DNA from: Chrysochromulina tobinii | Lineage: Eukaryota; Haptophyta; Prymnesiales; Chrysochromulinaceae | Assembly (NCBI GenBank): GCA_001275005.1 | Contig: JWZX01002932.1 | Location: 1-37,513 of the forward strand | DNA: 37,513 nucleotides | Reading direction: 5' to 3' | In this document: piece after piece, positions 1,545 through 36,100 of the stretch | Position numbering within the stretch: the first letter of the stretch is position 1 | Layout: each line of letters starts with the position of its first letter | Translations under genes and position numbers: made by a program | The notes under the pieces: generated by a model | What the model saw: the letters and a program-made list of their open reading frames with translations, nothing else | Told to the model about the DNA's origin: nothing | Databases searched by the model: none

Positions 1545-4500
1545 ATGCAGACGACTCCGAGGTCGCCGAAGCAGACACCGAGACAAGGACAAGTTGACGC
1601 CACTGCGAAAGACGCAAAGGACTACGACATGCTGGATGTCAGACTGGACGACGACACGCTGGACACACCGTGCAAGCACGAGTTTTCAAAGGACGCCGAT
1701 GATCATGACAGCGAGCTCGAGCCCTCTCACGACCCGTCAGACGACGGCTTCACCTTCACAGCGGTCCTCGTCGGTGGCCTCAACATGTGGAGAGATGTCG
1801 TAAAACACCTGTGCGGCATCAAATTCCCCGTCTTTGTCGCGGTCTTGGGCTCCGTGCTGCTCGTTGCCTTCTCCGCCTTGCCCGGCGATATCTGCATTAC
1901 TCAGAACGTCGGCAAGGTAATCTCGACCATCTGTCTCATCAGCGAGTCGAATTGGGTCATGGCGCTCCACCTCTCGGTCTTGGGCACGGTTTTGGGCTCG
2001 GTATGTAGCCGGAGCATCATGCGCGGCCTCCAGCATCCGATCGCCCTCATCATGACAGCGCGCTTGCTGCCCGTGCGCGCTCGAGCGTACGCCTCGGGCT
2101 CGAGCCGATCGGGTGCCATCGGCGCTGCCGCGGCCGCGCCGAGCCCCGTGACCATCGGCTACGTGACCGATGTCGAGGGCGACCTTGGCTTCTGGCGGCG
2201 CTACTGCGCCATCTCCGAGGTGATCGACGACAGCGGCGGCCTCGACGAGCTGCGACTGCACCCGGGCTGCCACTTTGTCTTCGGCGGCGACTCGGTCGAC
2301 AAGAGCAGCGGCGACCTGCGCTTCCTGCGCTCGCTGCTCGCGCTGCGCCGGCGCCACCCGGACCGCGTCCACCTCGTGCTGGGGAACCGCGACATCAACA
2401 AGATGCGGCTGCTGGCCGAGCTCGATGAGAGCCGCGACAACTGGCTCGCCGCCTCCGAGCACCCGGGCGTCTACTGGCGCGCGGGCGGCGGACCGGAGGG
2501 TGGACCGTCCACGCCAGCCACATACCTGGCGGCCCTCACGGGATCGCGCGCAATGGATACAGTCGCGAATCGTCTGCGGTACATGCTCGCCGACAACATG
2601 GGCTCGCCGCGCGCCTTTGAATTTCGTAGGCAGGAGCTCGCCGCACTCGGTGTGAACGCCGCCGCCGTCGCAGTCGGTGGCGATGCGCCGAGTGCGAGGA
2701 CGGCGGCGGCGACGGCGGGGGCGACGGCGGGGACGGTGGGCGGTGGTGGTGGTGGTGCGGCGGCGGCAGTGGGCCACACGGGAGTTGGAACAGGCGCCAT
2801 AGTGAGTGACGAGGCCGTTCTCCAGTCTTACCTCGACTCGCTCCACAAGCCCGAAGGTACGAATGCACCCGAGTGCACCTGAGTGCACCTGAGTGCACGC
2901 ACCTGAGTGCACCTGACGACCTCAGATTGCGTGCCTCACATCAGGTCTGATGCGGCAGTACCTCGAGCACGCCGTGCTCGCGGTGCGATTAGGCTCGGTG
3001 GTCTTCGTACACGGCGGCATTCATCCAGAGGCCATCGGCGTCGTGCCAGGGCGAAGTGCGATCTCCCTTGATTGCCCGTGATTGCCAGTGATTGTCCTTG
3101 ATTGCAAATGATGGCCCCGTTCATCCAGAGGCCATCGGCGTAATGCCTGGGCGAGGTGCGCCGCTGGCCGATGGAGCTGCTCTGCCCAGCATGCATGTGC
3201 TCACTACGACGCGCACTCTCCCCACAGGTGCGCCGGTGGCCGACATCGACGAATGGCTCGCTGCTCTAAATGCCTTTGCTCGCAAGGAGGTGAACGCATG
3301 GAGTGCGGACGTGGATGAGGTCGCAAGGACTGGCAAGGGGGCCGAGTGGGCAGGGCGACACGATCGCACCGGCTTTGGGTTCTTTGATCGACCAGGTGGG
3401 CTGAAGGCCACTGATGGCCACTGATGGCCTCTGATGGCCTCTGATGGCCTCTGATGGCGCCTACCGCATGTCTGAGCACGCACATGCTCACTACGACGCC
3501 CACGTCTCCTTCCCCACAGGTGGGAGGCTCCTCGCCTACGGCATGGATACGCAGCCCGACTTGACGAAATCGCCAACGGTCGTGTGCTCCTCGTACCTGG
3601 TGAATGGGCACCCGCACCGTCCGGCGGCGCGGGCGGTGGAGCGGTTGGCAGAGGCAGGGGTGCGTGCAGTCGTGGTGGGCCACCAACCCCACGGCGACGC
3701 GCCCGTTGTCATCCGATGCCCGATTAGGAAGGCGCAGGCAGCAGAGGAGCCCGCAGGGCAGTCCGCAGTGAAGTTCGCAGAGGAGTCCGCAGTGAAGTTC
3801 GCAGAGGAGTCCGCAGGGAAGTCTGCAGAGGCGGCTGCAGATGAGGATGCATTCCTCGTGATCACTGCGGACTCGTCGTTCAGTTCCTCTGTGGAATGGG
3901 AACCGCCCTCGTCCTCTCTGCCGCCGCCCTCGCCGCCCTCGCCGCCGCCCTTGCCGCCCACCACCGTGCCCACAGCGGCGCTATCGCCGCCGTCCACAGT
4001 GACGCCCAAGACGGCGCCCAGTTTCGGTCCGCCTCGCGGGCCATCACCGCCCCAATCCGAGGACCCCCGAGGTATGCATGTGCTCATCACGACGCTCTCT
4101 CTCCTCACAGGCCGGCCTCGCGGCCCATCACCGCCCCAATCCGACGACCCTCGAGGCATGGCAGTCGTCGAGGTGCTGCTTAGGGTTGCCTTGGATGGCG
4201 GCGGCGACCAGGACGGCGCCCAAGGTGCCGCCTTGCACCGCCAGCGCCACCAAAGCTGCCGCCACCACACCACCACCCGCACCGCCAGCGCCAGCGTCAG
4301 TGCCATTTGTGCACATGGGAGTGCTCACCACGGCGCCACCACTCCCCACAGGTATGCCATTTGTGCGCGTGCACGGTGTCCTATCGGATGGTCGTCGACT
4401 CGATTGCGTTGTCAGCGACGCCCCTACCGCCGCGGAGGCCTTCGATGGCACCATCCTTGTCGGCTCCGAGGCCGATGCAGCGACGGGGGCGGCGGCGGAG

Positions 4501-4728
4501 GCGGCGGCTGCAGCGGTCGATGCGAATGCGACGGACGCTTCTGCTCCAGCGGAGGCATGCGCCGTGTTGAGCACGGATGGCTGCTCGGCGCACGTGCACG
4601 TGGGGTGTGAGGTGGAGGGCGGCCGTTGGTGGATCAAGGCGAGGCTCGAGGACGGCGCGTGGCTGCTCTCGCGAGGGGAGGGATACAAGGTGCAGAACGC
4701 TGTGGCGGGTGGTAGTAGTTTAATATAA
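1545..4728 (+). CDS. Calcineurin-like metallophosphoesterase with membrane N-terminus
   Basis: Five or six exons; the proposed model is 1545-2856, 2945-3055, 3228-3395, 3520-4071 and 4352-4728, about 839 residues. All classic metallophosphoesterase motifs are visible in order: YVTDVEGD (about 206-213), GGDSVD (about 248-252), LGNRD (about 279-283), FVHGG (about 458-462), then VVVGHQPHGD in exon 4. They bind two metals in this family, so a phosphatase is likely; the substrate is unknown. The N-terminus has an acidic region and two hydrophobic segments (about 93-112 and 137-154), suggesting membrane association. If translation began at the Met about 170, the protein would instead start with a mitochondrial-like presequence. 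Exon 4 carries a repeated SAVKFAEE unit and a Ser/Pro tract. The join between 4029 and 4352 is ambiguous: copies of the introner module there are in frame and could be retained. The start is the first in-frame ATG. Confidence 0.85.
2857..2944 (+). other. Intron 1 of the phosphoesterase gene (88 nt)
   Basis: GTACGA donor and CACATCAG acceptor. Removal joins ...HKPE-G to LMRQYLEH in frame. The body is a tandem array of a 10-nt unit close to TGAGTGCACC, repeated about five times. Confidence 0.85.
3056..3227 (+). other. Intron 2 of the phosphoesterase gene (172 nt), with an internal copy of its own exon junction
   Basis: The donor follows ...GVVPGR and the acceptor CCCCACAG precedes GTGCGCCGG; frame is kept (phase 1). 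Inside, 3112-3170 repeats the flanking exon sequence as if uninterrupted: HPEAIGVMPGR runs directly into GAPLAD. TTGATTGC-type tandem units lie before this copy and the shared introner module (3189-3227) lies after it. Confidence 0.8.
3396..3519 (+). other. Intron 3 of the phosphoesterase gene (124 nt)
   Basis: The donor is GTGGGCTG and the acceptor TTCCCCACAG, with the next exon again beginning GTGGG. It contains five tandem CTGATGGCC-type units (about 3408-3457) and then the shared introner module (3480-3519). Without splicing the frame ends at TGATGG within the array. Confidence 0.85.
4072..4351 (+). other. Complex intron region with two introner modules
   Basis: One frame-consistent model removes all of 4072-4351 (280 nt, phase 1) and joins DPR-G to MPFVRVHG. 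Within it, 4074-4110 and 4311-4351 are both copies of the shared introner module. The 48-bp block 4029-4076 is repeated at 4112-4160, flanking the first module. The alternative is two small introns, 4072-4110 (39 nt, in frame) and 4300-4351 (52 nt), which would retain GMAVVEVLL as coding. The sequence alone does not decide. Confidence 0.55.
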
Positions 4729-4948
4729 ATGTGATGTAGTTTCTTCCCTTGCTAACGCATTCGGATATTTGTGGCACACTGCTGCGTGCGTGGGAGTTGG
4801 GTTCTGAGCCTTCCCCCCACGGAGTATACATCGTACTTCCAAATACGATGTATTCACACAAAGTTGTTCACAACCTTCACAAATCCCGAGCTGTCTCGTG
4901 TGAGTTTCCGTCTGGTCAAGGGGATAAGGGCCGACCACGTCCTTGAGG

Positions 4949-5788
4949 ATGAAGAGGACACTTTTGATGCTCTGCGCAACCGTGCACGGGTCCAATGTCG
5001 ATCTGCCACTTCTCGATGGCGCTCTGGCCGCCATTGCAGCCGCCAGAAATGCACTCACCGCTGCTGCAGAGGAGACCGCCGTTCGACGCATCCTACAGGG
5101 AGATGAACACCTGCTGCTACTGGCCAAGCACTTTGGCTACATGCCGAGCTTTGCACAGCTTCTCAACAATGCGGTGGGTCATCAGTCGGCGACTACGGTT
5201 GAGCCGTCGCTGGCGGCAGCGGCAGCTGGGGTGAAGCCGTCGCCGTCGCCGGTCAACGTGCTCACCTTGCGACGCAGTGTCAAGGAGTACGACTCTCGAC
5301 CAGTCCCGCCAGACAGCATCCGCCGAGCGCTCGATGCGGCGATCTTGGCCCCCAACCACTTCCTTACGGAGCCGTGGCGCTTTTACGAGCTCGGGCCGAC
5401 TGCGCGCCAGGCCGTTGGCGCACTGAACCCGGCAAAGCAAGAGGTCTTTGCCAAGGTACCCGGCTGGATGATGGTCACGGTCGCTGCGTCTGAGTACGCC
5501 GCGGACGGCAGTCTGAGCACTAAGAAAGGCCTCGAGGACCATGCGGCCACCGCCTGTGCCGTACAAAACTTCATGCTCTCACTGGCCGCTGAAGGCCTGG
5601 GCACGAAGTGGATGACGGGAGCTCTCGGCATTGTGCCTGAGAAGCTGATGGATCTGGCAGGTGTGAACGCGACGGCAGAGCGTTTCATGGGGATGGTGTG
5701 GTACGGCTACCCGCAGACGCAGCTGGAGAGTCTCACGGCACCTGCTCGCAAGCTGGGCGTCGAGGGCGTCTATAAGGTGCTCGCATGA
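4949..5788 (+). CDS. Nitroreductase-family FMN oxidoreductase
   Basis: 279 residues, single exon. The segment LTLRRSVKEYDSRPVPP (about 105-121), followed by AAILAPNHFLTEPWRFYEL (about 130-148), is the characteristic start of the nitroreductase fold, where the Arg-Arg-Ser binds FMN phosphate. The second half (GLGTKWMTGAL, then MGMVWYGYPQ) fits the rest of the domain. It resembles the compact bacterial type that reduces nitro or quinone-like substrates with NAD(P)H; the true substrate is unknown. About 100 residues precede the domain. The first 14 (MKRTLLMLCATVHG) look like a short signal or targeting sequence, the rest is helical. The frame opens with TTG 4943; ATG 4949 is the first methionine. 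It lies 220 bp downstream of the phosphoesterase on the same strand and converges with the next gene. Confidence 0.85.
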   Translation: MKRTLLMLCATVHGSNVDLPLLDGALAAIAAARNALTAAAEETAVRRILQGDEHLLLLAKHFGYMPSFAQLLNNAVGHQSATTVEPSLAAAAAGVKPSPSPVNVLTLRRSVKEYDSRPVPPDSIRRALDAAILAPNHFLTEPWRFYELGPTARQAVGALNPAKQEVFAKVPGWMMVTVAASEYAADGSLSTKKGLEDHAATACAVQNFMLSLAAEGLGTKWMTGALGIVPEKLMDLAGVNATAERFMGMVWYGYPQTQLESLTAPARKLGVEGVYKVLA

Positions 5789-5933
5789 GTGTTCGTATTT
5801 GGTCGCCGAGACAGGAGAAACAGAAAGCGATGGCCAATGGCAATGCGTCGCTATAACTCCGTATGATGGACATAAGGTGTTGGCAACTGTGCCAGACTGT
5901 AATTAGTTTGTCACTCTAAAGAGATATATGAAT

Positions 5934-8900
5934 TCAAGAGGGGGGCGCAATGCTCACGCTTGTCGACCCGCCAGGGCTCAGTCGCACCACGTGACTGGTG
6001 CCCAGCAACCCTCGGCGGGCACATCCGATTGCGGCGGAAGTCCCAAGACAAGAAACGTGCATACGGCCCGCACTGACGGCTGGCGGGAACACCCGCTCTG
6101 AACGTAGAAAGAGCGTTGCCTCGGAGGATGGTGCAGCTTCGTGTCGCAGCAGCGCGAGCTTCACGGTGTTGGTGGAGCCCTCAAACGTGAGCTGCTCGAT
6201 CATCGCACCCTCGACGCTGATCGTGAGCCCAAGTCGCGCGATGTATGCGCGCCGACGGAGTGCGTCGCGGGGCGCAATCGTGACCCGACCACCACACACA
6301 TCCGAGACGCTCGCCTGGCTCTTCAGCGCCATCGGCCTGTGGCGAGCCGACTATGTCGCACAGCATGCACTCCCATCCACGCCACACCGAGCAGTCGAGG
6401 TATGCTGCGGCCGAGCGCCAGTAGCCGTACAAGCCAATGCCGTAGTCGCCCGAGTAGGCGTCACGCCGAAGCAACGAGGGGTCGCCATGCCACGCCATCG
6501 AGGCAGCTCCGGACGGATGGATGTTGGAGAGATGGCCGAGTAACGCCGCAGCACCCAGTCGTAGCAGATGCCCCCGCCCCGGGTAAGCGCGGTATGCGTC
6601 GAGGACCGCCACCGCGCTCAGCGTGCTTCCGTAGTGATGAAATTCACGCTCGTTGCCGAGGGAAGTCTTGCCATTGATCACATAGTCCCAATACCGCCGC
6701 GCTGAGCCTGAGTACGCCCAATGCGGGAGCACCGCCATGTACGCGAGCACAGCATCGACTGTCTTGTTTGCGGCCGCGTGATGGCCCTCACGGAGCAGCC
6801 AGGTGTGGATCTCTTCGTGCCCGGTCGAGTCCCAGGGGAACTCCGAGCCGTACGGGAACTCCATCGCCATCCACTTGCGCATCCGTGCTCCTCTCAAGTT
6901 GCGCATCTGGACCACAGCTGCCCTGAGCTCGCTCGCATTGGCCGTCTGTGCAGAGTCGGCAGCATGAGTTCCTTTAGGGCCGGCGGCACTTTTCGCCACA
7001 GTCCAAACGTCTGCGGCTGGCTGCCTCTCAGCTGCTTCGAGCTCGCGCTCCAGATCGGCGAGCAATCGCTCGAAGACGGAGCCCACCATCAGACCCCATT
7101 GTGAGGTGCCGCTGCCCTTTCCGCCGTGCACCCACATGGCCGCTGCCGTCCTCGCCGCCTGCAGCAGGTACCAGTGCCAGCTCGCGCGCGAGGCAAGCGG
7201 CGGCGAGAAGTGCCTCGCGAGCCGGTAGAGTGCCCAATAGACAGCAGTCACGTGCGGGTAGTTGTACGCGCGCCAGGTCTCCAGTGACCGATTCTCACTC
7301 CAGCACACCATCCAGTTGCAGCAGTTGGTCTTCTTGGCACACGCAGTCCAGCACTTGAGGCACTCGGCCGTCAGCGCCGGCGCGGCCGCACGCGCCCTCT
7401 CGGGCGCCGCCTGAAATTCGTCACTCCAGTAGACCATCGAGGCGCGCACTGCATAGTCTCGGCCCTGCAGAAACTGACGCCTGTCTCCATGCTCAGGCGT
7501 CCAAAGCGTCTCGTGCACGTACGCCTCGAGTTGCGCCACCTCCGAGGCCACGGGCGCCCCGAGCTGCTTGATGGCCATCGCGAGCGGAGCCGCTGCGCCT
7601 GCTTCGTCGGAGAGCCCATCCATAAAGATTCGAGGCTCGTCTAGGAGCGCTCCCGCGCCCACGCCCTCCCCTGATCGGTCGGCATCACTCCCCATGAAGG
7701 CGGGTGCGCGGTGCCAAGGGTCGGGCTTACCTGCCGGAAGCCAAGCCTGTCGACTGCCGTACGCGCCGTGCCGCTGCAGGAGCGAGCGTGCGTGCTCGAG
7801 GATGATCAAGTGCACAGTCTGCACGAGCGAGGGCGTGTGACGGCACCAGCCTGGCGACCCGAGGGCCGCGCTGTGATCACAGCCCTTTGCGTAGCGCAGC
7901 GTGAGCCTACAACGCCCAACGGCTTCGCGCAGCTTCAGAGTGATGACCTGCAACCGATGCCCCGACTCCCTCGTTGTCCCGTCGCATCCAACCCGCAGCG
8001 CGTCGTCGCCGCTGCCCATGTCAGCGCAGGAGATGAGGCGAGGGGCTTCCACGACGAAGTCGAGCGCCGACGGTGGGTCGGCACTGATGTTTACGAGAGC
8101 GAGCCAACTTCCCGACGGCAGCGATGGCAGCAGGACCTCAACTCGCGCCTGCATGCCCACGTGAAGCGAGGCAGCGGGCAGAGGAGTGGCGACGGGCATG
8201 CCGGCACCCACCAGCGCAGCAGGCACGTGGTCAACGGAAGCCGCAAGACGAAGCCGTACGCCATACGTAGCTGTTGCGCCGGGTAGCAAGGTGGCCTGGG
8301 TCGGAATGTTCCATGGATCTGGCTTGACCCCTCGATAATTCCACTCCTCTTGCGCATACGCTTTCGAGTGGAACACGATCTCGTAGAGTGCCTCGAACAT
8401 CCACCCCTTGCTGTCTCGCGACTCATCCTTCCGAAGTGGACGCCACGCCTCGAAGCCGGCAGCCTCTGGAGCGCCGTCACGGGCAGCCTCTGGCGCGCCG
8501 TCGCGGGCAGCCTCTGGAGCGCCATCCGCCGCGACGGCGCCGCGCGGCTGCGAAGACGGAAGCACGAGCAGGACTGGCCCACGACCGTTGGCACGTGTCA
8601 CCTGAACGTAGCCTGCGCCTGCCCCGAGGTACACCTCGGTGAAGCTGCAGTTGGCCGCCACATTGGCGAGGTGGCGCCCCGTGAACAGCTGGTTGAACGG
8701 CATCGAGAAGCCGAGCCCGCCGATCTGGAGCGCGAGATCGGCCGTATTTCGGAGGGACCAGCTGATGGACGCCTCGTCGCCCTTGGACGCGACGAGACGT
8801 GTGACGCGCAAGCCCGAGCCTCTGAGCACGTGCACTCGCGCAGCAGGACGTAACCCAGTGAGTGCAAAGGGGTACCATGAATGAATTCGTGCATCAGAGA

Positions 8901-9985
8901 CTGGCAGCATTGATGTTGAGAGGAGGGAGAGAGGAGGGAGGGATCTGCGTGTGGCACTGGAACGCGCACCGAGGCCGGAGCTGCGTGGTCACATCCATCG
9001 AAGCCGACGACCCATCACGAGACGCCACCAGCCCGCCGTCTGCGCCCGAGTCGGCGGGGTGAGGGGCGCTCGCCACGACCGTCGAAAAGCTAGTGTACCG
9101 AGCCTCGAGCGCGGCGGCGTCGGAGCGCGGCGCCGTTGGATCCATTGTTGGATCCAAGCGGCGCACGCGAATCGTCAGGTCTCCGAGGTGCTGGAAGCCG
9201 GGCGTGGAGCGATCGAGCGGCTGCGCCACGTTGCCCGAGCCCGACCAGTGTAGCTTGACGGACGGTTCGCGTAACGGGATAGTGTACGAGAAGCCTGATG
9301 TGGCGGCAGGGGTGACGACTTCGACCGTCCCGAGATCCGTTCGAAGTCCGATCAGGAAGGCGTCGCCGCGCCGCCCGCCCAGAGGCAGCAGCGATGAGCG
9401 AGTGAGTGCGGCACGATCGATGGCGAGGCCAGGGTCGAGCGCAGCCATTGGTGGCTCTGGTGGCTCGGGCGGCGGCGACGAACGTGGCGGTGGCGGCGGC
9501 GGAGGTGGCGGCGGCGGCGGCGGCGAGGCTCGCAGACGAGCGACGGTCTCGGCGACGCACGCGCTCAAAAGGCAAGCAGCCTCAGAGTCGATCCGCTGCA
9601 ACTGGTACGCGGCGCCACCATCGCCGACCTTTGCAAAGTGGTCCATCGTGATCTTCGGCTCGCTTGGAAGTGCCTCGACCATCGAGAAGTCGAGCGCACG
9701 CAGCTTGCACCCAGAGGTAGGGAATCGGATCCACGCCCGCATGCCTGCATCATCGATCCTCCAAACAGAGCCCCACTTTGAAACGAGGCATCCGGCACTG
9801 GCGATGGCTGCTGGTGGTGAATCAACGGCTGCAGCAACCGTGCTTATTGGAGGCGGTGGCGGAGCTGTGACTCGGGCTTGCTCGTTTGTGGCCGATTGGA
9901 GCATTTGAGTAGCCGGCTTCAACACATTCGCCCACAGCACGGCGGCGCCGACGATCAGCAACAGCACAAAGTGCCGGTTCCGCAT
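5934..9985 (-). CDS. Large type II membrane protein, DUF5695/glycosidase-like ectodomain
   Basis: Proposed exons on the minus strand are 9985-8970, 8821-6352 and 6314-5934, about 1288 residues. The N-terminus MRNRHFVLLLIVGAAVLWAN is a signal anchor. A Pro-rich stalk follows, then a beta-rich region starting GDAFLIGLRTDLGTVEVV and continuing across the first intron (VTTQLRP to RGSGLRVTRLVAS, LQIGGLGFSMPF). The helical second half has YNYPHVTAVYWALYRLAR (about 857), EFPYGSEFPWDSTGHEE (about 992) and YSGDYGIGLYGYWRSA (about 1124), resembling the alpha/alpha-barrel of DUF5695-type secreted proteins; the family name is from memory, so treat it as likely. A role in processing extracellular or Golgi glycans is an inference. 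DGAPEAAR is repeated three times near 8456-8530. The frame changes at 6315-6351, where a 37-nt intron or a frameshift is needed to reach the C-terminal beta segment (VTIAPRDALRRRAYIARLGL). Confidence 0.75.
6315..6351 (-). other. Frame break: 37-nt intron candidate or frameshift
   Basis: Reading on in the long frame gives unrelated residues and a stop at 6181, while the expected C-terminal domain lies in another frame. A GT-AG segment of 37 nt (donor after GWECMLCDI, acceptor GAGCCAG before ASVSDVCGG) restores it exactly. Such a short intron is unusual, and a one-base assembly error would have the same effect. Confidence 0.5.
8822..8969 (-). other. Intron 1 of the DUF5695-like gene (148 nt)
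   Basis: Donor GTGCGCG after QLRP and acceptor GTGCTCAG before GGCTCGGG; the phase 2 join is in frame. It also contains a pyrimidine-rich stretch and a second, out-of-frame acceptor (TGCCAG at about 8907). Confidence 0.75.
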
Positions 9986-10278
9986 TGTGAAACTCACGGA
10001 TGTGCAGGCAATCCGCCGGCCAACCGTCGGCCCTCTCGGCGTTCGGAAAAGAGGGCCGTCGGCCCTCTATGGGAAGCGCGCGGGATCGGTGTGAACAACC
10101 AAATTTGGAAACCGAAAAAACAATGCCAATCCGTCGCACAATAGTTCGAGCGCGGACGTGTGCGGACGTGTGCTTGTCGGTGTGCTCACGGCAGCGCCGT
10201 TACGTAAGTTTCGCCGAGAAGTGCGTTCCGCTAACACGTCGGCTCTCAAGATCGCGCTGACGGGAACGCAAGGCGAGG
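9986..10278. promoter_or_regulatory. Shared divergent 5' region (293 bp)
   Basis: It separates the start of the minus-strand DUF5695-like gene from the plus-strand MGCGAS gene, so it must hold both promoters unless these lie inside the genes. Direct and inverted GTCGGCCCTCT copies occur at about 10026-10067. No TATA box was recognised. Confidence 0.4.
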
Positions 10279-10736
10279 ATGGGCTGCGGCGCCTCCCATG
10301 AAGGACGACTTTCGCAATCGTTCCCCCCGATCCGGAGAGCGTCAAATCATTCAAAAGTAGTAGGGCCCCAAGTAGGGGAACCTCATCGTGCCGCCACTGG
10401 AATCCTCGTGGTAGAGTACGAGTTCAGCGAGGAGGATTGGGAGGATTTGACAGTTTACGAGGCCGGTGCGTCAGGCCCCTCTGCATTCGAGGCCGTACCC
10501 ACATGCATCTCATCTGTTGCACTGTCCCCCTCTCTCGCACAGGTATGGCCAGGGCTCGAGCAGCGGAAAATGCAAGGCAGCTAGGAGCGCTGAAATCAGC
10601 GCTGAAGTCGCCATCGTATGAGCTCACCAGCCATGCACACCGTTCGATTGAGCTCTCTATGACCGCATCTGGGACGGACAGCAGACCAGTGCTCTTAAAA
10701 CTATTGGCGACCAAGGGGCGCGCGACCAAGAGGTAG
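10279..10736 (+). CDS. Small MGCGAS protein, predicted N-acylated
   Basis: Two exons (10279-10465 and 10543-10736), 126 residues. The N-terminus MGCGASHEG is a textbook dual-acylation signal: Gly2 for N-myristoylation and Cys3 for palmitoylation, implying attachment to the plasma or flagellar membrane. An acidic stretch follows (EYEFSEEDWEDLTVYEAG), then a basic helical C-terminus ending TKGRATKR. I recognise no enzymatic domain. The intron join (EA-G to MARARAAEN) keeps the frame in phase 1. It lies 293 bp from the divergent DUF5695-like gene. Confidence 0.65.
10466..10542 (+). other. Intron of the MGCGAS gene (77 nt)
   Basis: Strong donor GTGCGT and acceptor CTCTCTCGCACAG. The 3' part (about 10501-10542) loosely resembles the introner module: an ACATGCATCTCAT start and a pyrimidine tract, but a different middle. 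Confidence 0.7.
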
Positions 10737-11068
10737 CGACCAAGGCGCGCGTAGGGGTAGACTTTTCTCGACGGGGCTTTGCGGCTATCACTTGTACACT
10801 CAACATTGCATCTTTAACTCACACTGTACACCTTAGAGTATTCGTATTCTACTAGAGTTGTTGTAACGCATGCTAAGCATCTTGACCCGATCTACTCACT
10901 CTGCGAGCGTACACATCTGCCGCCGAACATCATACTATTATACGGCCCGGAGCCGTCCACTGCGCGGCACTGCACGCAGAGGGTTCTCAGCTCTCTGTCT
11001 GCACCGGAGCAATTGTGAGCCGCGCACTTCCATATTAGGGATGTGCCCTCTCAACAAGCCCGCGCACG
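10737..11068. other. Convergent 3' spacer
   Basis: Between the stop of the MGCGAS gene (+) and the stop of the next minus-strand gene. It is lower in GC than its neighbours and presumably holds both 3' UTRs. I see no repeat or RNA gene. Confidence 0.5.
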
Positions 11069-11719: not shown

Positions 11720-11810
11720 AATGGCGCTTTGAAGCGGCTTGGGCCCGCAGTTAGTTTCGTAGCTTCTGCATGAAACTTTGACCATATTTGGGGTGACTTT
11801 CCTTTTTTTG

Positions 11811-13307: not shown

Positions 13308-13375
13308 GGTTTGAAGGGTTGAGTTATTCCATTAAAGGTCTGAGTTGGTGCTGGTTGGATTTCGCGATCAATACG

Positions 13376-13409
13376 CGATCATTCCCCCGGCGCCCCGGGG
13401 GGGTGATCG
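13376..13409 (+). other. Strong stem-loop after the PAN/WW gene
   Basis: Arms 13376-13390 and 13395-13409 pair over 15 positions (two as G-U in RNA) around a 4-nt CGCC loop, with a C5/G5 core. It starts 69 nt past the stop codon, so it may lie in the 3' UTR. Function unknown. Confidence 0.6.
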
Positions 13410-13877: not shown

Positions 13878-13911
13878 ACTGACTGACTGACGACACTGAC
13901 TGACTGACGAC
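13878..13911. repeat. 17-bp tandem repeat, two units
   Basis: Two perfect copies of ACTGACTGACTGACGAC, each itself built of ACTG steps. A simple repeat in the 5' region of the SEC14 gene. Confidence 0.8.
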
Positions 13912-15636: not shown

Positions 15637-15689
15637 TCAGTGATCTGATCTACGTCTATCGAGCGGTACCGTTAAATCTGTTGAACGAA

Positions 15690-25224: not shown

Positions 25225-25319
25225 TCACGCCTGAGCCGGAAGTTCCGGCAGGACGCCGCCGTGACCGATCCAACCGAGTCCGAGACTTGCGTTCGGTGGC
25301 ATAGGGAAACGTCTGCTGT
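25164..25319. repeat. 22-bp perfect inverted repeat at the 3' end of the PDZ/IQ gene
   Basis: Arm 25164-25185 is the exact reverse complement of 25298-25319. The right arm codes for part of HSRRFPMPP near the C-terminus of the minus-strand protein, and the left arm lies about 40-60 nt past its stop. A transcript reaching past 25164 could fold back over its own stop codon. Confidence 0.85.
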
Positions 25320-28300: not shown

Positions 28301-29982
28301 TCGCATCGACTGTCGCCTTCTCCAACCACGCCACCTGCGCCGACACCTCTGCTACTCCCGGGGCGTGGCTTCCCTAGAATTGGCTGCTCCAAGCCCTCAG
28401 GCCACCAATCGTCGTAGTCGTCATCGGCGCGCGTAGCCTTCGCCTCGGCTCCCGGGGCGGCATCCTTCACGGGCGCGAGGGACTCGGAGTCCTCGGCGCC
28501 GCTCTTTTGGAGCCCTCCATGGTGCCGTTCGACAAAGGCTCGCACCTCCGTCTCCAGGTGGAAAGCATCGATCCCCGTATGCTTATGGCAGAGCTGCAGT
28601 ATAAACTCGTGCCGGTCCGGAAGTGGCATCGCGACAAACCGCCCCCAGTCGTCCTCTGTTAATGAATCAAGCACATCCTGCAGCTTGCCCGGTAGGCCGT
28701 CGCGCAGCGCCCAAAACTGAAGCCGGCCGCGCGCGCCCGGCGTGCCGCCTTCCCTATGCCTCACTTCTCGTTCCACCTTAACTGCGGCCACCGTTCTTTT
28801 GGCGAGCCTGCCGCGGCTAATATTCTGAATCTTCTGCGCGGCCTGCTGTCGTTCCTCCTTCTCCTTGCGCGCCTTCTTGCCTCGCACCTTGGCCTGCACC
28901 TTGCTCGCCGCCGCGCGCTTCTGCTGGCTGCTCCCCACGCTCTTGGCAGCCTTCTGGCGGTAGTTAACCTCCTCCTCTTCCTCCTCCTCCTCCTCCACCT
29001 CAGCCTTTTGGCGCTTTGCCTTTGGTGGCGGTGGCGTCACCTCCGCCGTACCAGTCGGTGCCGGTGGTGGAGGCGGCGGCGCCTCCTCCTCCTCTTCATC
29101 AAAAGTCTCGTCAAACACGCAAGCGGCCTCATCCTTCCAGACAAAGGTCATCATGATGACGTTGCCGTTGGCGTCCGTCACCGGGTACGATACGGTCACT
29201 GTTCCAAAGAGCATCCACAGGAAGGCCGCGTACTCATGCCCGCTGATTCCCGCCGTCCACGTGTCTGCAAGCTCAAAGAAGGCGTCCATAAAGCGCTTGC
29301 GTGAGAGGGTGGGCGCGCCTTTCGAGTCGTTCTTCCAGTCCTCGGCAATCGTCTTCTCCGCATCCACTGGGTCGAAGTTCTTGATCATGACGCGGTAGAT
29401 GCGGCGCAGCATGATTGCATGCCCCTCCTGGTGTAGCTCGTTAGCATTTGGATCGCCTCCCGAGTGCAAGCTGCGTTGTGCGGCCTCCCAGAAAGCTTGC
29501 AATGCCTCGAGCACGCGCCGGTCGTGCCGGAGCTTCTGCCGCTCACGCATCTTCTCTTCCGTGGCCAGGCTGGCGTCGCCCTGCTGCCACATCTCGAGCT
29601 TCTCAAGATCCGCCTCCGACTCTACGACGGTTGTGACTGTGCCGCTCGCCATGCTCTCCTCTTCGGCGGTAAGCGCCTTCTTCACCTTTGTATCGAAGCC
29701 CAAGGAGCGCAGGATGGCTTCACCGTGTTTCGCACCCGCGCGAAGCTTGGCCATGTACCGGTCGTGGTTTGAGCTTTTTGTTTCACTCTTGCCCCAGGCG
29801 GCCAAGGCGCCCTTTCCTCCAAGCGCGACGCTAGACGTCAGCCGGCGCTTCATCTTAGCGAGCGACCGTGCAAAGTTTGAGACCTTATGCCATCGCAGGC
29901 CCGCCTTTGATACTGGGCGAGGGCCAGCACCTGAAGCAGCAGTGGCGGCGGCAGTCGCACCCTGTTGGCGTGCTGGACCCAT
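25225..29982 (-). CDS. Giant PDZ/IQ multidomain protein, possibly flagellar
   Basis: 1585 residues from ATG 29982 (MGPARQQGATAAATAASGAG), no intron required. Order: a helical N-terminus; a calcium-sensor-like helical module about 190-262 (IYRVMIKNFDPVDAEKTIAE, LADTWTAGISGHEYAAFLWM), a pattern I associate with algal flagellar-associated proteins; Pro and poly-Glu tracts; two IQ motifs about 358-400 (AASKVQAKVRGKKARK, AAQKIQNISRGRLAKR) for calmodulin or EF-hand partners; a helical segment (LQDVLDSLTEDDWGRFVAMP); and a PDZ-like domain about 616-696 (PFKITLTWRYPDGFGLTV, KVALGDRVIAVNDNEI). A further conserved-looking block follows at about 884-1010 (DEYWQRYETLNWTGIEMRPT), then a long disordered Ser/Pro tail with a VEASRPQSR unit repeated three times (27432-27507). 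A scaffold role, perhaps in cilia, is inferred from the domains. Confidence 0.8.
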   Translation of the reverse strand: MGPARQQGATAAATAASGAGPRPVSKAGLRWHKVSNFARSLAKMKRRLTSSVALGGKGALAAWGKSETKSSNHDRYMAKLRAGAKHGEAILRSLGFDTKVKKALTAEEESMASGTVTTVVESEADLEKLEMWQQGDASLATEEKMRERQKLRHDRRVLEALQAFWEAAQRSLHSGGDPNANELHQEGHAIMLRRIYRVMIKNFDPVDAEKTIAEDWKNDSKGAPTLSRKRFMDAFFELADTWTAGISGHEYAAFLWMLFGTVTVSYPVTDANGNVIMMTFVWKDEAACVFDETFDEEEEEAPPPPPPAPTGTAEVTPPPPKAKRQKAEVEEEEEEEEEVNYRQKAAKSVGSSQQKRAAASKVQAKVRGKKARKEKEERQQAAQKIQNISRGRLAKRTVAAVKVEREVRHREGGTPGARGRLQFWALRDGLPGKLQDVLDSLTEDDWGRFVAMPLPDRHEFILQLCHKHTGIDAFHLETEVRAFVERHHGGLQKSGAEDSESLAPVKDAAPGAEAKATRADDDYDDWWPEGLEQPILGKPRPGSSRGVGAGGVVGEGDSRCEPSASSAPAAEAEASAPVELLMLTSRPLTGKRRSFLESYTGGEGIFDPSKLELPGAGRPFKITLTWRYPDGFGLTVDSENVVTGIKTDDAPRTMRKVALGDRVIAVNDNEITREKPVKMFTDGSSEGQQATFTLIRLATADAVEEASAPAPATDWPMVVGRPKTPTSRPASSRPQRSRTPPRPGSSRPDSRGSSRGSTLSPPPSRGGPRPEPPPSDMPPVDHTSSKEGSTSSSRLPSRQSNRRTIHMQPRLSHEAVGEGSGEVGSRVEASRPQSRVEASRPQSRVEASRPQSPPSVEFALDGNHVPLRGRSACSTRSSHTNMSAMPPRRARVVVPSPMDEYWQRYETLNWTGIEMRPTTGRELRNKLLISALGYGVRDFTKVQLERIGVRHLHGDEFVQFGDGFLAVAPHVMDSSWFERHPSLQLSQPYFKLAVGAKDCNEHVHRMTPRAFAIGRTDHSQREVGARVEGAHDSAGATAADAALEGGAPELLQSSNSSGASAVAAGGGGPRHAKMLIAAAPMNLLPRRGSPIPIEPSPPSDSLGVVPSPITQYLAFLDERRPPPPTRPSSNTTSFVEGSGYGYGGSERSHMGTHDVSFGMSASLTSSAVLCESAVQSARTSSAAGGSWYNAIRSSASYKEDVYSREFDARAAEAIEQLTPADVANQFTTAWVTPTVGRQGRFQAIAPRGPGRRSPPPSIPTVLDPHRSQLGPAMPLMRPLPIKLPISGAGCPGVARPPRNPPSVPPSLPVPPARNSSSPRGLGPPVPEWMQHAEDRAAWRLPGTSTETSEPRWYEPRWQQRHVKSQYTTDTTLYDGAVGPDGTLFRPSTKSESRDAASDSHRDHASEFTRPPSPVGSSVTTSAVWRDPLGNVYESVYEHDPPRRSVGSWTGYTLVDTSYASTASATSRPDYAPATAIATGPATAPAPFGAQSVPASPSSSRVSRGGMRSPRLQLQPRRPPRSSALSERSHSQPVSPRGPRPPLSSSPLPTLGDTGHSRRFPMPPNASLGLGWIGHGGVLPELPAQA

Positions 29983-30931
29983 CCTTCGGTGTGCAAGCCT
30001 TTCCACACGAAAAGATCTGCGGTGTCACCTCTGACGAGCCGATTGGAGGCAAACCTCTTGCCACTGCTGAAGTCTCGTCGAGCGTACTGCCGCCCGTGTC
30101 GTCCGCGTGGTCTTGTCGTTGCGGACGCGGCTCACCGTCGCAAAATAGAACGACAAGGCGACTTCAAAGAAACGCTACCGGTACAGTACTGTACCGGTAA
30201 AAAGACAACGCTACCGGGTACCGGTCAACTTTCGCACTCGCGTTCATGCGCGTTGACACGACCTCTTCGCTACTGGTCCTATTGCTTGGAGCCCTTTCGC
30301 TTTTGGAGCTTTGGTCAGTCCCTTCTTTCGAAGAACGCCCGTGCGCTCGACGTGTGTGGTGACTTTATACTTATTTGAGATGTGATGGCCAAAGGCTCCG
30401 CTCGGTGGACCGCCTACCCGCTACCGCGCATCCACGCCGCGGAGGCGGTTGCCGGTACATCGAGCGAGTTGCCGAGATCGCTGTTCGGCGCATGTGTTTG
30501 GCATTGACCGGAGACCGTGTCAAGGGGAGACCGTAAGTGTAAGTAAGTAAGAAAGTGGCAGCGTACAGACGTGGCGAGGGGGATACCCAGGCATACAGGG
30601 CATGTCGTGTACGGTGTTATTGACCCATGACCGGAGACCGATATTCCCGATGTTCAACTTGAAGTTCAACATGATGTTGTATAGAATTTTCACATTTCAG
30701 AGACGCTCGCACATCACGGTGGTCTAGTCCAACTGGTTACGTGTCCTCGTGTCGACCGGGCCGGCGGTACCTCTAAATCCCACCGGTCGATGAATCGCTT
30801 GCGTTTTGTGTGTTCGCACGTGTCGACCAATGATCTATGATGTCGGACAGTGTTCGTGGAAGAGCGATGTAAGCGTGACGAGTGTTAATGAAGTGTGTAT
30901 CATGCCGTGCAAGCCTTCATCTCCGCAATTG
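29983..30931. other. Spacer upstream of the PDZ/IQ gene
   Basis: 949 bp holding the promoter of the PDZ/IQ gene and the 3' end of the WKF gene. It contains the 24-bp palindrome at 30176-30199 and an 8-bp inverted pair (TCGACCGG and CCGGTCGA near 30752 and 30784). Open frames are short and unconvincing. Confidence 0.5.
30176..30199. repeat. Perfect 24-bp palindrome next to a repeat-end fragment
   Basis: The half-sites TACCGGTACAGT and its exact complement meet at 30187/30188. The right side continues as ACCGGTAAAAAGACA, the reverse complement of the TGTCTTTTTACCGGT end of the dispersed repeat. It may be the joined ends of two repeat copies in opposite orientation. Confidence 0.8.
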
Positions 30932-31504
30932 TCACTGCTCGAATTCTTGACTACTCTTTGCCGCCACGAGTGCGTTCAACACTCGCAGCGCGCGTGCTCG
31001 TTGGATTTTGAGCATAGCTCTCTGCTCCTCGAGTGCTGCTATGCCGCCATCCTGGGCTGCGCCACCGCCACCGCCCGTCTCATTGTCCTCGTCGTCCTCC
31101 TCATCAGCAGCATCAGCATCAGCAGCAAGCTCCTTTCTTGCAGCCACCCGCGCCTCGAGAGCCAGCTCATCCTTCTCAGCACTGGTTGCGACCTGTTTCG
31201 CCTGCTCGATAGTCTTGGTGGCAGTTCCTTCGGGCAGCGTCTGCAGGTAATTGAGCAGATGCTTGAACGAGTCCCGAGAGACTCGATGACTGTGAGGCCA
31301 TCCCTTGAGCAAGAATGTCTGACGAGACTTGCTAAACTTCCAAGTCGCATTAGGCTCCTTCCGAACCGCCCACTGCTCAAGGTATTCACTTGCAGCAGCT
31401 GCGGCTGCACCGCCAGCCGTTGCCGCTGAGGCTGCAGCATCTGGCTTGCGCGCTTTGAGCTTCTTCTTGCGCCGTTGCTTTGCCTTGACAGATCCTTTAC
31501 CCAT
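30932..31504 (-). CDS. WKF-domain nucleolar protein (C7orf50-like)
   Basis: 190 residues from ATG 31504 (MGKGSVKAKQRRKKKLKARK); the frame continues upstream to 31651 without a better start. The Lys/Arg-rich N-terminus looks like a nucleolar signal. The core about residues 39-100 contains YLEQWAVRKEPNATWKFSKS, RQTFLLKGWPHSHRVSRDSF and KHLLNYLQTLPEGTATKTI, the WKF domain that defines the C7orf50 family, with the WKF tripeptide intact. The C-terminal half has an Asp/Glu-rich tract and a helical end (MLKIQRARALRVLNALV). Family members are nucleolar and linked to ribosome production; the exact role is not settled. All three genes from 25225 to 37073 are on this strand. Confidence 0.88.
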   Translation of the reverse strand: MGKGSVKAKQRRKKKLKARKPDAAASAATAGGAAAAAASEYLEQWAVRKEPNATWKFSKSRQTFLLKGWPHSHRVSRDSFKHLLNYLQTLPEGTATKTIEQAKQVATSAEKDELALEARVAARKELAADADAADEEDDEDNETGGGGGAAQDGGIAALEEQRAMLKIQRARALRVLNALVAAKSSQEFEQ

Positions 31505-31780
31505 CGGATCGTTCGTGTATGAACACCTGTCGCTCTTGGTCCGGAGGCTGCTCAGAAGCCGGACGACGTGCGCGCGGAGCCTGTGTGGACGGCTCTTGCC
31601 ACGCGGCAGCACGACAGAGCGTCGCCTTGGGCGGATTGCGAAAACAAGCACGTCAATGACGACTGCGGGACTAGGATTTTGTGCTTGAAAAGCACTATGG
31701 GTGTTCCAGCACGTGTGATCATTTGTTCAGCCATGGCGCGCACACTCTGGAAATGCAGCGTCATTCCCTACTGCAATTCC
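31505..31780. other. Spacer between minus-strand genes
   Basis: 276 bp: 5' region of the WKF gene and 3' region of the EF-hand gene. No repeat, RNA gene or clear core promoter seen. Confidence 0.4.
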
Positions 31781-33119
31781 CTACCCTACTCCAGGTCCAC
31801 GCGGCACCTCAGCGGCGTCGCTACTGCTGGCCTTCCCGGCCACCCTGGCATTGATCGCCTCCACCTCGGCCGCGCGCTCCACTGCGGCCTGCTTCTCCTT
31901 CTTGAGCCTCTTCGTCGACGCAGCCTTGAGCAGCGAGTTGATCTGATCGGCTTCAGCTTTCGTCTTACGGAGCTTTTCAAGAGTCCGAGCTCCCTCCTTC
32001 TCAGCTGCGGCCATCTTGGTGCCCTCGATCATTACAGCTGGATCCATGGCCGTCCAATTGATCTTCTCGCCCGTCGCAGCTGCCTTCTCCATCAGATCTG
32101 CCGCCTGCTGCCGCGCCGCCAGCCGCGCCACTTCCAGTTCGGCGGCTGCCTCCGCAGATTTAGCAGCTTTTTGGGCTGCGGCCCTCGCAGCATCGGCTTG
32201 AGCCGCCTCTTGGGACGTCCTTTCAACGGCCAGCGCCTCGGTAGCCGCCACAGCGGCGGTCACGCGCGCTTCGTCGTCAGCACGCTCCACCGCTTTGTCA
32301 GCACGCTGCACCGTTTCGTCAGCACGCTCCACCGCTTTGTCAGCACGCTGTACCGTTTCGTCATCACGCTGCACCGCTGCCCGCTCCGCTGCCGCGCGCT
32401 CCACAAGTGCCTGTTCTGCCGCTGCGAGCTCTGCTGCTGCCTTCTCTGCCACCTCTTGCTCCGCCGTGACCTGCTGCACAGCTACTCTCTCTGCAGCCGC
32501 TCGCTCCGCTAGCGCTCGTTCCGTCGCCGCCTTCTCTGCTGCCGCAGCCATCTCTGCTGCCGCCGCCATCTCTGCCGCCGCAGTCTTCTCTGCCGTCGCC
32601 GCCTTCGCTGCCGCCGCCTTCTCTGCTGCCACCTTCTCTGCTGCCACCTTCTCCGCTGCCACCTTCTCTGCTGCCGCATCCTCTGCTGCAGCATCCTCTG
32701 CTGCCGCCTGCCGCGCGGCGGCCCTCTCTGCCGTAATGCGCTCGGTCTCCTGCCTCTCCGCCTGCTGCTTCTCCGCAGCAGCCCATCGCGCCTCCTGCTC
32801 TGCTGCCTCCACGCCCATGGCTGCTTTCGCCGCCTCCATCGCAGCAGCGCTCAAGTTGGGAGGCACATACTCTCTGGGAACGTATGGCTCAGCACGGCTC
32901 GGCGTCTGTGTCGGAGCTGCCGAGGGAGGAGCAGACGGAGGAGGCGCACATGCGGGAGGCGCGACCAGCGAGGCCTCCGCATCAACGTCCACCTCAGCTA
33001 CCTCAGCTGCAGCCTTGGCCTCCGCCGCCGCCTCGGGTACGGGCGCCGCCTCGGGCGCGGGGGCCGGCGCAAAGGCCAAAGCAGCTGCTTCGGCCGCCAC
33101 AGTATCGGTCGCCGCCGCC

Positions 33120-33199
<80 letters not shown>

Positions 33200-36100
33200 C
33201 ACCGCCGCCGCCTGTGCAACATCTGCCGCCCGCACCTGTGCTTGAGCAGCGACCCGCGCCTCAGCCTCAGCCGCCGCCTTCATCTCGGCAACTTTGGCCC
33301 TATCAGCGTTGCCCCTCTCAATGGCTTGCAGCCTCGTGGCTGCCTCCTGCTGTGCACTCGCCTCCGCCGCCTCCGCCGCTGCTACTGCCGCCTGCGCCGC
33401 CTGCACCTCCGCGGCCGCCTTCTGCGCTGCCAACCGCGCGTCAGCCTCTTTTTGAGCCTTGAGCGCGGCAAGTTTGGCCCTATCCTTCTTGCCCCTCTCG
33501 ATAGCCTGCAGCTTCGTGGCTGCCTCCGCCTCCGCTGCAACCCTCTCCGCCTCCGCTGCAGCCCTCTGAGCTGCGGCTGCCTCCGCTGCGGCCCTCTGCA
33601 CCTGCGCTGAAATCCTCTCAGCCTCGGCCGCCGCAGCTGCCGCCGCCTCGGCGAGGATTGCTTTCACGACGGCCTCCTCCTCATCGGCTTCCTGCAGGAT
33701 TGCCGCCTCGTCGGCGTCCTCCTTCGCACGGTGCGCCGCCGCCCTGTCGTCGGCTGCGAGTCGTGCATCCACACGGCGCTTCGCCTCCAACTTGGCCTGT
33801 TCTAGGAGCTCCTGCTCCTGCTTCTCCCTTTCCAATCGCTCCGTGAGCAGCTGCTCTTCCTTCCGGTGGGCGCTCGCCTGCGCCGCAGCTTTCGCTGCCG
33901 CCGCCGCCGCCGCCACTTCCGCCGCCTCCGCCGCCGCTGCTGCCTCTTCCGCCGCCGCCAAAGCCGCCAAAGCCGCCTCCGCCTCCGCCTCCGCCTCAGC
34001 GATCGCCTTGGTTGCAGCTTCCGCTCTGCGATGCGAGTCCACATAACGAGCCCGAGTAGCGTTACCACGCTGCGTGGCCTGGAGCATGGTGGCCGCCTCG
34101 ACCTCAGCAGCCGCACGCTCCTCGGCGCTGAGCTCGGTGATGGGTTGCCTCCGAGGCAGGGCCTCGGCGCTGGGCTCGCTGACGGACTGCGCGACGCCCC
34201 AAACCTCTTCGTACGTGGTTTCCCCCACCTCGGGCGGTGGGGGCGGCAATGCTGCTATGGGGGTTGAGGCGTTGGCGGCCGCAACGGCTGGCGGGGAGTC
34301 GGAAGACAAGGGTGCGCGTGGGGGCGGCGTCTCCTCGATAGGCTCCAGCGCCGCCGGCACTCGCAGCGATCCTGACAGTTCCGGCGGCTCCGTAACTGCA
34401 CGGACACTCGCAGCGATCACCCCCTCCACCACGGCCTCTCCGGGGGTTTGAGGCCTGCTGACGGCCCGGAGACTCGCCGCGATCACCCCCTCCACCACAA
34501 CCTCCGCAGGCGTTTTGGGCCTTTCAGCGGTCACTGCCTGGGCACTCGCAGCGATACCCCCCTCCACGGTCTCGGCAGGGGATGGGGGCCTGCCGCCGGT
34601 CAGGACGCTCGCAGCAATCCCCTCCTCCACGGGAGCGTACGGCTCGGGCAGATCTTGGCACAAATCTCGGACGCTCGCAGCGATCCCCTCCACGGGAGCG
34701 GACGGCTCGGGCAGATCTTGGCACAAATCTCGGACGCTCGCAGCAATCCCCTCCTCCACGGGAGCGGACGGCTCGGGCGGATTTTTGTACTCCACAGGAG
34801 CATAGGGCTCGGTGGGGGACATGGCGGGGGAAGAAGGCGCGGGGGTCTGTGCCGCCGACGGTGGAGCAGATGGAGGGGAGCCAGGGGGCGCGCCGATCGG
34901 CACGGCCTCGGCGCCAGAGCCCATCTCAACGATCGGCGCGGCTTCCGCGCCCGTCACGGCACCCGCGTTGTGATGGGCACCCGCGTCCTCATCCGGAACA
35001 GCATCGGCCGTCTCATCTGGCTGCACCTCGCCCCCCTCCTCCACCGCCTCCTCGTCCGCCTCCGCCACCGCTGACGCCTCGCGCGACACTGTCGCCCTTG
35101 CAACGGGCGCAGCCGACGGCGCAAATGCAAGCGCGGCGTCATTGATGGACGCCAAATCAATTTTGAAACTGATATTCACCTGTGGGGAGAGTCGAGCGCC
35201 GTGGTGAGCACTTGCATGCCAACGGCCACGTGGACGCCCAATCAATTTTGAAACTGATATTCACCTGGATCGGCGCGGGCGCCGCCGCTTCGTCGGCCAA
35301 CCCCTCAGCCACCGCCCCGCGCACGCGACGGTCCACAGCCGCTGAGGGTGCAAAGACGGGCGCAAAGTAGTCTGCCACGTCCTCTGCCACCGGTTGGACT
35401 ATGGCTAGCGACTTCGTCGGGCGCGCGTCGAGCTGCACGGCGACGGGCGGGGCGGCGGCGGGCGCAGTTTCTCTCAGGCTCTTGGTCCGTATAGGCGGCA
35501 GCCCTTGTTCCTTGCTGGCGAGGTGATGCAACTGACGCTCGAGGGGAGTCGGCGGTCCCTCAGATGAGCGAGTGAGTGGCACACGTCCATCTGCTTCCTT
35601 GAACGTCTTCGGAGGTTGCTGCCCATAGCATAGCTGCGGATGTCTACGAGTCACGCCGTGGTGAGCACTTGCATGCGGCGGCTTTGGACGGCTTCGGATC
35701 GGCGAGAGGCCCCCCGCACTTCGGCCAGGGCTGGAACCGCGGCTGTGGCTCGGGCTGGAGCCTCTCGATCGGCGGTTAGGGCTCGACCCGATCTCCCCGA
35801 TCTCCCTCGAGATCTCCCCGTCGTCCGGCGGCGGGCGCGCCCGCGGCTGCAGCTGGCTAAGCGGCGTTGCGAGCTGGACAAGCTCATCCGTCGTGGGCGG
35901 AGGCAGTATCGGGCGCCGGGCGGGCGGGGGCACGAAGGGGGTGATGCAAGATTTGGGCTCGGGCGCCACGTGACGCTTGGCGAGCTCGACGGCAGATCGC
36001 GCTCTCGGCCGATCTCGGTCGATCTCGATGGCGGAGCTCCGGCTGAGGCCGCCGTTCTCTACGCTCACGCCGCCGCCGCTGCGACTTGCGCCTCCGTCCG

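What the first reader, a model, noticed from the sequence alone, without database searches (positions are those of the whole stretch)
3189..35676. A shared ~38-nt intron 3' module (introner family) in two genes on opposite strands
Copies sit at 3189-3227, 3480-3519, 4074-4110 and 4311-4351 (+) and at 35180-35220 and 35644-35676 (-). The core is GCATGCAAGTGCTCACYACG, then RCG, a pyrimidine tract and CCCCACAG. Unrelated introns do not share 3' ends like this. Every copy is in the sense orientation of its host gene, and the frames require splicing at most of them. This is the signature of introner-like elements, known from algae such as Micromonas and Aureococcus; this family's core and its small size may be undescribed.
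Basis: partly seen in the sequence, partly recalled or inferred. Interest (0 to 1): 0.88.

Follow-up and report, generated by a model that had tools for sequence, protein, structure and literature searches.

The report
Tiny introners with long target duplications
A haptophyte alga carries over two thousand copies of a 24-letter sequence that, when it lands in a gene, often leaves a second copy of about 35 letters of the landing site and so appears to make a new, cleanly removable intron, in a way that does not look like the usual jumping-gene route.

Summary
The repeat is real and is best read as an introner family. The window matches a 37,513-base contig of Chrysochromulina tobinii (inferred). 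The genome holds 2,442 matches to the 20-nt core with up to 3 mismatches (reversed control 8). The invariant part is 24 nt, followed by a variable pyrimidine tract and CCCCACAG. Intron = target duplication (donor) plus element (branch-site-like motif, acceptor); splicing restores the exon. Removing five introns in the window gives a 926-aa frame; a relative shows an empty site in another gene. A second family ending CTCATCAG (3,062 matches, control 0) shows the same duplications in 19 of 40 tested sites. Acceptor-less copies have insertion lengths mostly divisible by three (14 of 20). Published introner TSDs are given as 3-9 bp (PMC9860276, section 7). Long variable duplications and 5' microhomology (n=18) argue against a transposase; repair-type versus RNA-primed copying is inference. 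No RNA-seq was available.

The parts
3189..3227 (+). Introner copy 1: core 3189-3212, tail and acceptor CCCCACAG to 3227
3156..3171 (+). Upstream copy of the target duplication of copy 1 (GTGCGCCGCTGGCCGA); the other copy is exon start 3228-3243; 15 of 16 match
3476..3519 (+). Introner copy 2: core 3476-3499 (diverged), acceptor at 3519; only a weak duplication (12 of 13 next to the core), with a TGATGGCC array at about 3400-3460
4072..4110 (+). Introner copy 3: core 4072-4095, acceptor CTCACAG at 4110
4031..4075 (+). Upstream copy of the 45-nt duplication of copy 3 (41 of 45 match; its last 4 bases overlap the core); downstream copy 4115-4159
4313..4351 (+). Introner copy 4: core 4313-4336, acceptor at 4351; intron 4300-4351 is only 52 nt
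4301..4312 (+). Upstream copy of the 12-nt duplication of copy 4 (12 of 12); downstream copy 4355-4366
35180..35219 (-). Introner copy 5: core 35219-35196, acceptor CCCCACAG ending at 35180
35231..35264 (-). Upstream copy of the 34-nt duplication of copy 5 (33 of 34); downstream copy 35179-35146
35653..35676 (-). Copy 6: core without a pyrimidine tract/CCCCACAG acceptor; reading frame open through it (HASAHHGV), so possibly an exonic in-frame insertion
1428..4728 (+). Host gene of copies 1-4: phosphoesterase-like protein; introns removed in the model: 2857-2944 (no module), 3056-3227, 3396-3519, 4027-4110, 4300-4351; 926-aa frame plus stop (the true start codon was not determined)
   Evidence: the family name comes from the database name of NCBI protein Ctob_003976; Pfam itself gave no hit

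Best explanation
Supported by the tests here: this is one of at least two high-copy introner families in a Chrysochromulina genome. Many insertions add a short element (24-nt core, with or without a pyrimidine tract and CCCCACAG) between two copies of the target, mostly 25-47 nt long. Copies with the tail read as introns by frame and homology (no RNA data): the upstream target copy gives the GT donor, the element gives a branch-site-like motif (GTGCTCAC) and the acceptor, and removing duplication plus element restores the pre-insertion exon. Copies without the tail tend to have insertion lengths that are multiples of three, as expected of tolerated exon insertions. Inferred: copying happens during repair of a break or nick pair staggered by about 25-47 nt. 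The upstream DNA end pairs by a few bases with the start of the core (GC, GCATGC) of a nearby introner's DNA or RNA, copies 24 to about 60 nt, and is rejoined upstream, often at an AG/GT-like position; gap filling makes the long duplication. Selection then keeps copies that splice or stay in frame.
For: Copy number and specificity. Duplications: 77/135 against 6/666 permuted; 56 non-tandem cases with the duplication start 16-47 nt from the core; in 18 of these it reaches the core within 2 nt, lengths 16-40, mean 32.7, sd 5.7. Bases after the duplication match the start of the core by 1.56 nt on average against 0.47 at other offsets, p about 1e-4, n=18. Second family with the same architecture: 19/40 against 1/388 permuted. 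Domains continuous after splicing: DSPc, JmjC, GH47 314.5 to 327.0 bits, window gene. Empty site: P0021 has GH47 intron 1 but not intron 2; 14 of the 19 rows have neither. No-acceptor copies: 14 of 20 rows divisible by three (11 of 16 after collapsing tandem arrays by hand, p 0.004); acceptor copies 30 of 81. Tails alike (normalised edit distance up to 0.2) in 14/216 same-locus pairs against 72/6660 pairs between loci, permutation p 5e-4.
Against: No RNA-seq and no strain comparison at DNA level. The fetched loci were chosen because they are rich in copies. 58 of 135 acceptor copies show no strong duplication. 5' microhomology rests on 18 copies, 8 of which have none. Microhomology at the 3' side of core-only copies is weak: outside tandem arrays only 2 of 13 hand-picked rows show any (6 and 3 bases). 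Median tail distance is 0.5 both within and between loci, so the local effect rests on a minority of pairs, and gene conversion could also cause it. Codon-usage strand calls were weak (70 sense, 45 antisense of 117) and an open-frame test did not separate sense from antisense (37 against 44 of 56).
Confidence: 0.58

Rival explanations
1. SINE-like retroposition: an intron RNA is copied by a LINE reverse transcriptase by target-primed reverse transcription, which also gives variable duplications and microhomology at the 5' end.
For: 26 RVT_1 and 50 endonuclease-domain matches, within about 2 kb of each other on nine contigs, so LINE-type machinery is present; in spliced copies the 3' end CACAG lies directly before the duplication; 5' microhomology; variable 5' fillers such as TGCCTT, which match the longer form.
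Against: No A-rich tail. The element's 3' end is not constant: CCCCACAG, CTCATCAG, or directly after GGCGC. Duplications are longer than the 7-20 nt usual for LINEs (recalled). The local tail likeness is not expected of a trans-acting system.
Confidence: 0.26
2. Non-autonomous DNA transposon (MITE-like introner) moved by a transposase, as proposed for Micromonas and Aureococcus.
For: Thousands of copies, duplications at both sides, donor site recruited from the duplication as in the published Symbiodinium case (PMC9860276, section 7 read).
Against: The consensus ends are not inverted repeats of each other. Duplication length varies widely. The tail varies from copy to copy. Core-only and longer forms have different ends. 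No transposase search was made.
Confidence: 0.06
3. Tandem genomic duplication of AG/GT exon pieces makes the introns, and the shared core is only the splicing signal that selection keeps.
For: AG/GT bias of the targets (A 0.52, G 0.82, then GT). The mechanism is known (PMC3443670, passages).
Against: The same core recurs at thousands of places and is absent from the empty GH47 site of P0021. It is also found in acceptor-less copies, some reversed relative to the likely reading frame.
Confidence: 0.06
4. The motif is a general, strongly conserved 3' splice signal of this species, not a mobile family.
For: It holds a branch-site-like motif, a pyrimidine tract and an acceptor.
Against: A second family of introns has a different 3' end. 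Conservation extends 14 nt upstream of the putative branch point. Presence/absence between relatives.
Confidence: 0.03

Closest known systems
Introners of Symbiodinium, Chrysochromulina sp., Florenciella and Aureococcus (Gozashti et al. 2022, PMC9860276)
   Same: High-copy intron-making repeats; in one published mode the element carries the acceptor and the duplication supplies the donor (section 7).
   Different: Previously described duplications are given as 3-9 bp, with 4 and 8 bp in the examples; here 16-40 nt where complete and variable, with a 24-nt core and no inverted repeats. Supplementary tables were not open to me, so these families may be listed there.
Micromonas introner elements (PMC3879977)
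   Same: Thousands of repeat introns; one class (mean 67 nt) has a conserved branch-point motif (passages).
   Different: The passages seen mention no target duplication, and one says that such copies are never in coding sequence; here acceptor-less copies lie in open reading frames.
Amoebophrya introner elements (PMC7789003)
   Same: Repeat introns with direct repeats at the exon borders (passages).
   Different: Direct repeats of 3-5 nt and inverted repeats of 8-20 nt; neither is the case here.
Intron gain by tandem genomic duplication or by repair of staggered breaks (review PMC3443670; Daphnia)
   Same: Direct repeats at intron ends; AG/GT duplication gives a precise intron (passages).
   Different: In the passages seen the inserted sequence is not a repeated family; here it is.
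Direct repeats near intron borders (PMC11782384)
   Same: Direct repeats of 4-30 bp at intron ends (abstract and passages).
   Different: Mean 11.4 bp over 213 introns of many kinds; not one mobile family.

Membership tests
Introner (broad sense) | Many near-identical sequences that form introns at unrelated positions | tested here: met
   different targets with proteins continuous after splicing
Introner (broad sense) | Sense orientation relative to the host gene | tested here: met
   67 of 68 neighbouring acceptor pairs on the same strand; direct gene evidence for L012, L014, L039 and the window. Codon-based calls were inconclusive.
Introner (broad sense) | Spliced in RNA | not testable with these tools
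   No RNA-seq; only frame, homology and one NCBI gene model that joins to the acceptor at 3227
DNA-transposon introner | Short duplication of constant length | tested here: not met
   16-40 nt in 18 complete cases
DNA-transposon introner | Terminal inverted repeats | tested here: not met
   By inspection of the consensus: ends GCATGC and CCCCACAG (or GGCGC) are not inverted repeats of each other
DNA-transposon introner | Related autonomous element with transposase | not tested
   No search for it was made
Fungal introner-like elements | No target duplication | tested here: not met
   Duplication in 77 of 135 copies
LINE-mobilised SINE | Variable-length duplication and 5' microhomology | tested here: met
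   (18 copies; 8 of them without microhomology)
LINE-mobilised SINE | Constant 3' end or A-rich tail shared with a LINE | tested here: not met
   Ends differ between forms; the LINEs' own 3' ends were not read

The most novel reading that the evidence does not exclude
Introns in this alga are born as repair patches: a 24-nt sequence is the smallest copied unit, taken by microhomology from an introner nearby (its DNA or its just-excised RNA) into breaks staggered by about 25-47 nt. No transposase is involved, several unrelated intron sequences are spread by the same process, and the same process also writes 8-codon peptide insertions into exons.
Probability: 0.36. Interest if true: 0.86.

Novelty: new variant of a known kind. 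Interest (0 to 1): 0.73.

Why it matters
Where new introns come from is a long-standing question, and recent mass gains have mostly been put down to DNA transposons (PMC9860276, passages). This genome offers thousands of cases whose scars (long variable duplications, 5' microhomology, some locally shared tails, likely in-frame exon copies) point instead to repair-type or RNA-primed copying. It also shows why such insertions could be nearly harmless: the duplication lets splicing give back the exact exon. That makes the mechanism open to test by comparing strains.

Tried and rejected
Codon-usage strand calling was too weak, and the open-frame test around junctions did not discriminate. A strand bias of acceptor-less copies was not significant (3 of 37 against 2 of 100 on the minority strand, Fisher p 0.12). 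A family-free search for duplications was swamped by minisatellites (9,242 positions) and was replaced by the CTCATYAG test. Pfam found no family in the window phosphoesterase; of six spliced pieces one had matches over the cut-off, two only below it, three none. GIY-YIG (Penelope-type) enzymes: 4 matches, none on a contig with an RVT_1 match; Penelope duplications in the passages seen are 8-10 bp (PMC3846280), so that route was dropped. The 23-nt core was not found in prokaryote genome contigs, a 20-nt core once and the extended pattern not at all in viral contigs. A first try to splice L012 used wrong coordinates and was redone. A constrained splice signal and simple tandem duplication were considered and disfavoured as sole explanations (see rivals). 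Paper searches on introner with target site duplication and splice site, introner alone (67 papers, 40 listed), with haptophyte and with Chrysochromulina, and on intron gain with repair terms, showed no description of long variable duplications in what I saw: listings, and for eight papers passages or one section, no whole text. Only open-licence papers are held and supplements were not available.
Full report
Observation. Five copies run through a pyrimidine tract into an acceptor; the sixth (35676, -) does not. In the whole assembly (53.15 Mb, 2,253 contigs) there are 2,442 matches with up to 3 mismatches and 8 for the reversed pattern; 277 places have an exact 20-nt part of the core followed by CCCCACAG.

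Source. A database protein 93% identical to a third of the spliced window query is Ctob_003976 of Chrysochromulina tobinii, longest contig 37,513 bases, the window's length. The species is a prymnesialean haptophyte. Its genome paper gives 59 Mb in 3,472 contigs (the assembly held here is smaller), 63.4% GC and on average one intron per gene; the word beginning 'intron' occurs once in its main text, so introners are not mentioned (PMC4580454, passages).

Anatomy. In 35 stretches (249,482 bases including the window, chosen for being copy-rich) there are 167 matches to the 20-nt core with up to 4 mismatches. Conservation starts sharply at GCATGC, lasts 24 nt, and is followed by a C/T-rich tract that differs in length and letters. 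A second script took the 24-nt core with up to 5 mismatches, dropped copies within 200 nt of a stretch end and repeated entries, and set aside 31 without an acceptor by its rule. In the remaining 135 the first 15 exon bases recur within 200 nt upstream with at least 13 matches in 77, against 6 of 666 when exons are swapped among copies. In 70 of them the duplicate begins within 60 nt of the core. Among the 56 of these outside tandem arrays that distance is 16-47 nt; in 18 the duplication reaches the core within 2 nt, mean 32.7 nt, sd 5.7, and the exon starts with GT in 48 of the 56. Intron length in the 56 is 57-93 nt, median 77. So such an intron is duplicated target plus element, and splicing would return the original exon.

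Protein evidence. In the window, removing five introns (four with the module) joins a 926-aa frame. Leaving in any of the four introns that are not multiples of three ends the ORF early (484, 521, 578, 904); intron 4027-4110 is in frame. Of 11 database proteins aligned with the spliced query, seven read across both of the first two module junctions without insertion; P0146 has a ten-residue insert of other sequence at the first and diverges at the second, P0134 and P0139 end before, and P0141 is the NCBI model of the same gene. The third and fourth junctions lie beyond that query; the end of the 926-aa frame resembles the ends of P0135 and P0136 by eye only. Elsewhere the junction lies inside a continuous DSPc domain (E 5.5e-25) and JmjC domain (E 2.2e-16); removing two introners from a GH47 gene raises its score from 314.5 to 327.0 bits (the donor of the first of the two was chosen by hand).

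Empty site. In the GH47 alignment of 19 rows the query, P0014, P0015 and P0029 carry both introners (in P0015 and P0029 the second is read in a shifted frame), P0021 carries the first but has a single YGARWGSLPA at the place of the second, and 14 rows have neither (one of these, P0032, has an unrelated insert near the first). This is protein-level evidence, from metagenome-derived and database proteins, that intron and duplication arose together.

Second family and other forms. Of 101 CTCATYAG sites in the same stretches 40 are followed by GT or GC; 19 of the 40 carry the same kind of duplication against 1 of 388 permuted (a few of the 19 are tandem arrays; the other 61 sites were not tested). 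The pattern TGATTGCMTYCCTCATCAGGT, up to 2 mismatches, has 3,062 genome matches and 0 in control. A longer form, in which TTGATTGCCACTGATGACCTGCCTT precedes the core, has 175 matches, up to 3 mismatches, and 0 in control; at L047 +7587 it lies between perfect 30-nt repeats, where the duplication would supply the acceptor instead. Of 20 no-acceptor rows with a duplication score of at least 12, 14 have insertion lengths divisible by three (11 of 16 after collapsing tandem arrays by hand, p 0.004), against 30 of 81 with acceptor; 10 ambiguous rows (5 divisible) were kept apart, and some of the 20 may be introns with unusual acceptors. In L046 four insertion events (six core copies) read RRGEHLHA or close variants in an open, coiled-coil-like frame on the opposite strand; that this frame is the gene is inferred from its composition only.

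How it may be copied. The bases after the duplication match the start of the core by 1.56 nt on average against 0.47 elsewhere (n=18, 8 with none; p about 1e-4). At the other end of core-only copies such sharing is weak (2 of 13 hand-picked non-tandem rows). Tails of copies at different targets in one locus are alike more often than between loci (14/216 against 72/6660; permutation p 5e-4), though the medians are equal. LINE-type reverse transcriptases are present (26 RVT_1 and 50 endonuclease matches, together on nine contigs); GIY-YIG matches (4) are not on those contigs. Variable long duplications, 5' microhomology and several different element ends speak against a transposase. They fit templated repair of staggered breaks, or target-primed reverse transcription of intron RNA. 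I cannot tell the two apart, and prefer the first because two families with different ends share the architecture and some donors seem local.

Known or new. Introners, and the trick of taking the donor site from the duplication, are published (PMC9860276, section 7), with 3-9 bp duplications cited there. Micromonas carries 6,112 elements of one class (PMC3879977, passages), so the copy number here is high but not a record. New, as far as my searches of open papers show, are the long variable duplications, the 24-nt minimal unit and its likely exonic in-frame copies.

Limits. No RNA-seq, biased sampling, a small junction sample, no count of intergenic copies, weak codon-based strand calls and an uninformative open-frame test.

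Noticed in passing
window 3056-3155 and 3396-3475: Introns also contain short TGATTGCC/TGATGGCC repeat arrays; one such insert (about 3064-3120) is itself flanked, by eye, by a roughly 41-nt repeat of TTCATCCAGAGGCCATCGGCG..., so a second kind of insert with a long duplication may lie in the window.
   Followed up: partly
genome-wide; examples in L043, L052, L056: Second introner family ending CTCATCAG with minisatellite-like interiors and the same long duplications (3,062 genome matches to its 3' module).
   Followed up: yes
L046 2046-2990 (+), L040 1616-1700 (-), L052 4177 (-): Core-only insertions of 24 nt plus duplication with lengths divisible by three, some as tandem arrays that look like repeat-spacer arrays.
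   Followed up: partly
window 3228-3420; NCBI Ctob_003976: The deposited gene model joins to the acceptor at 3227 from a far upstream exon and reads into the next introner (ends GGLKATDGH), so introners may have harmed automatic annotation of this genome.
   Followed up: partly
L059 4321-4554 (viral-collection contig): A contig with phage-like frames ends in a stretch with the core and, by eye, an approximately 36-nt repeat around TGACGAACCC units; possibly a chimeric assembly or DNA of a related alga.
   Followed up: partly
G000 contigs C914, C1323, C1586, C1004, C1728, C962, C1778, C767, C367: Endonuclease and reverse transcriptase domains close together on each contig: LINE-type elements are present in this genome.
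   Followed up: partly
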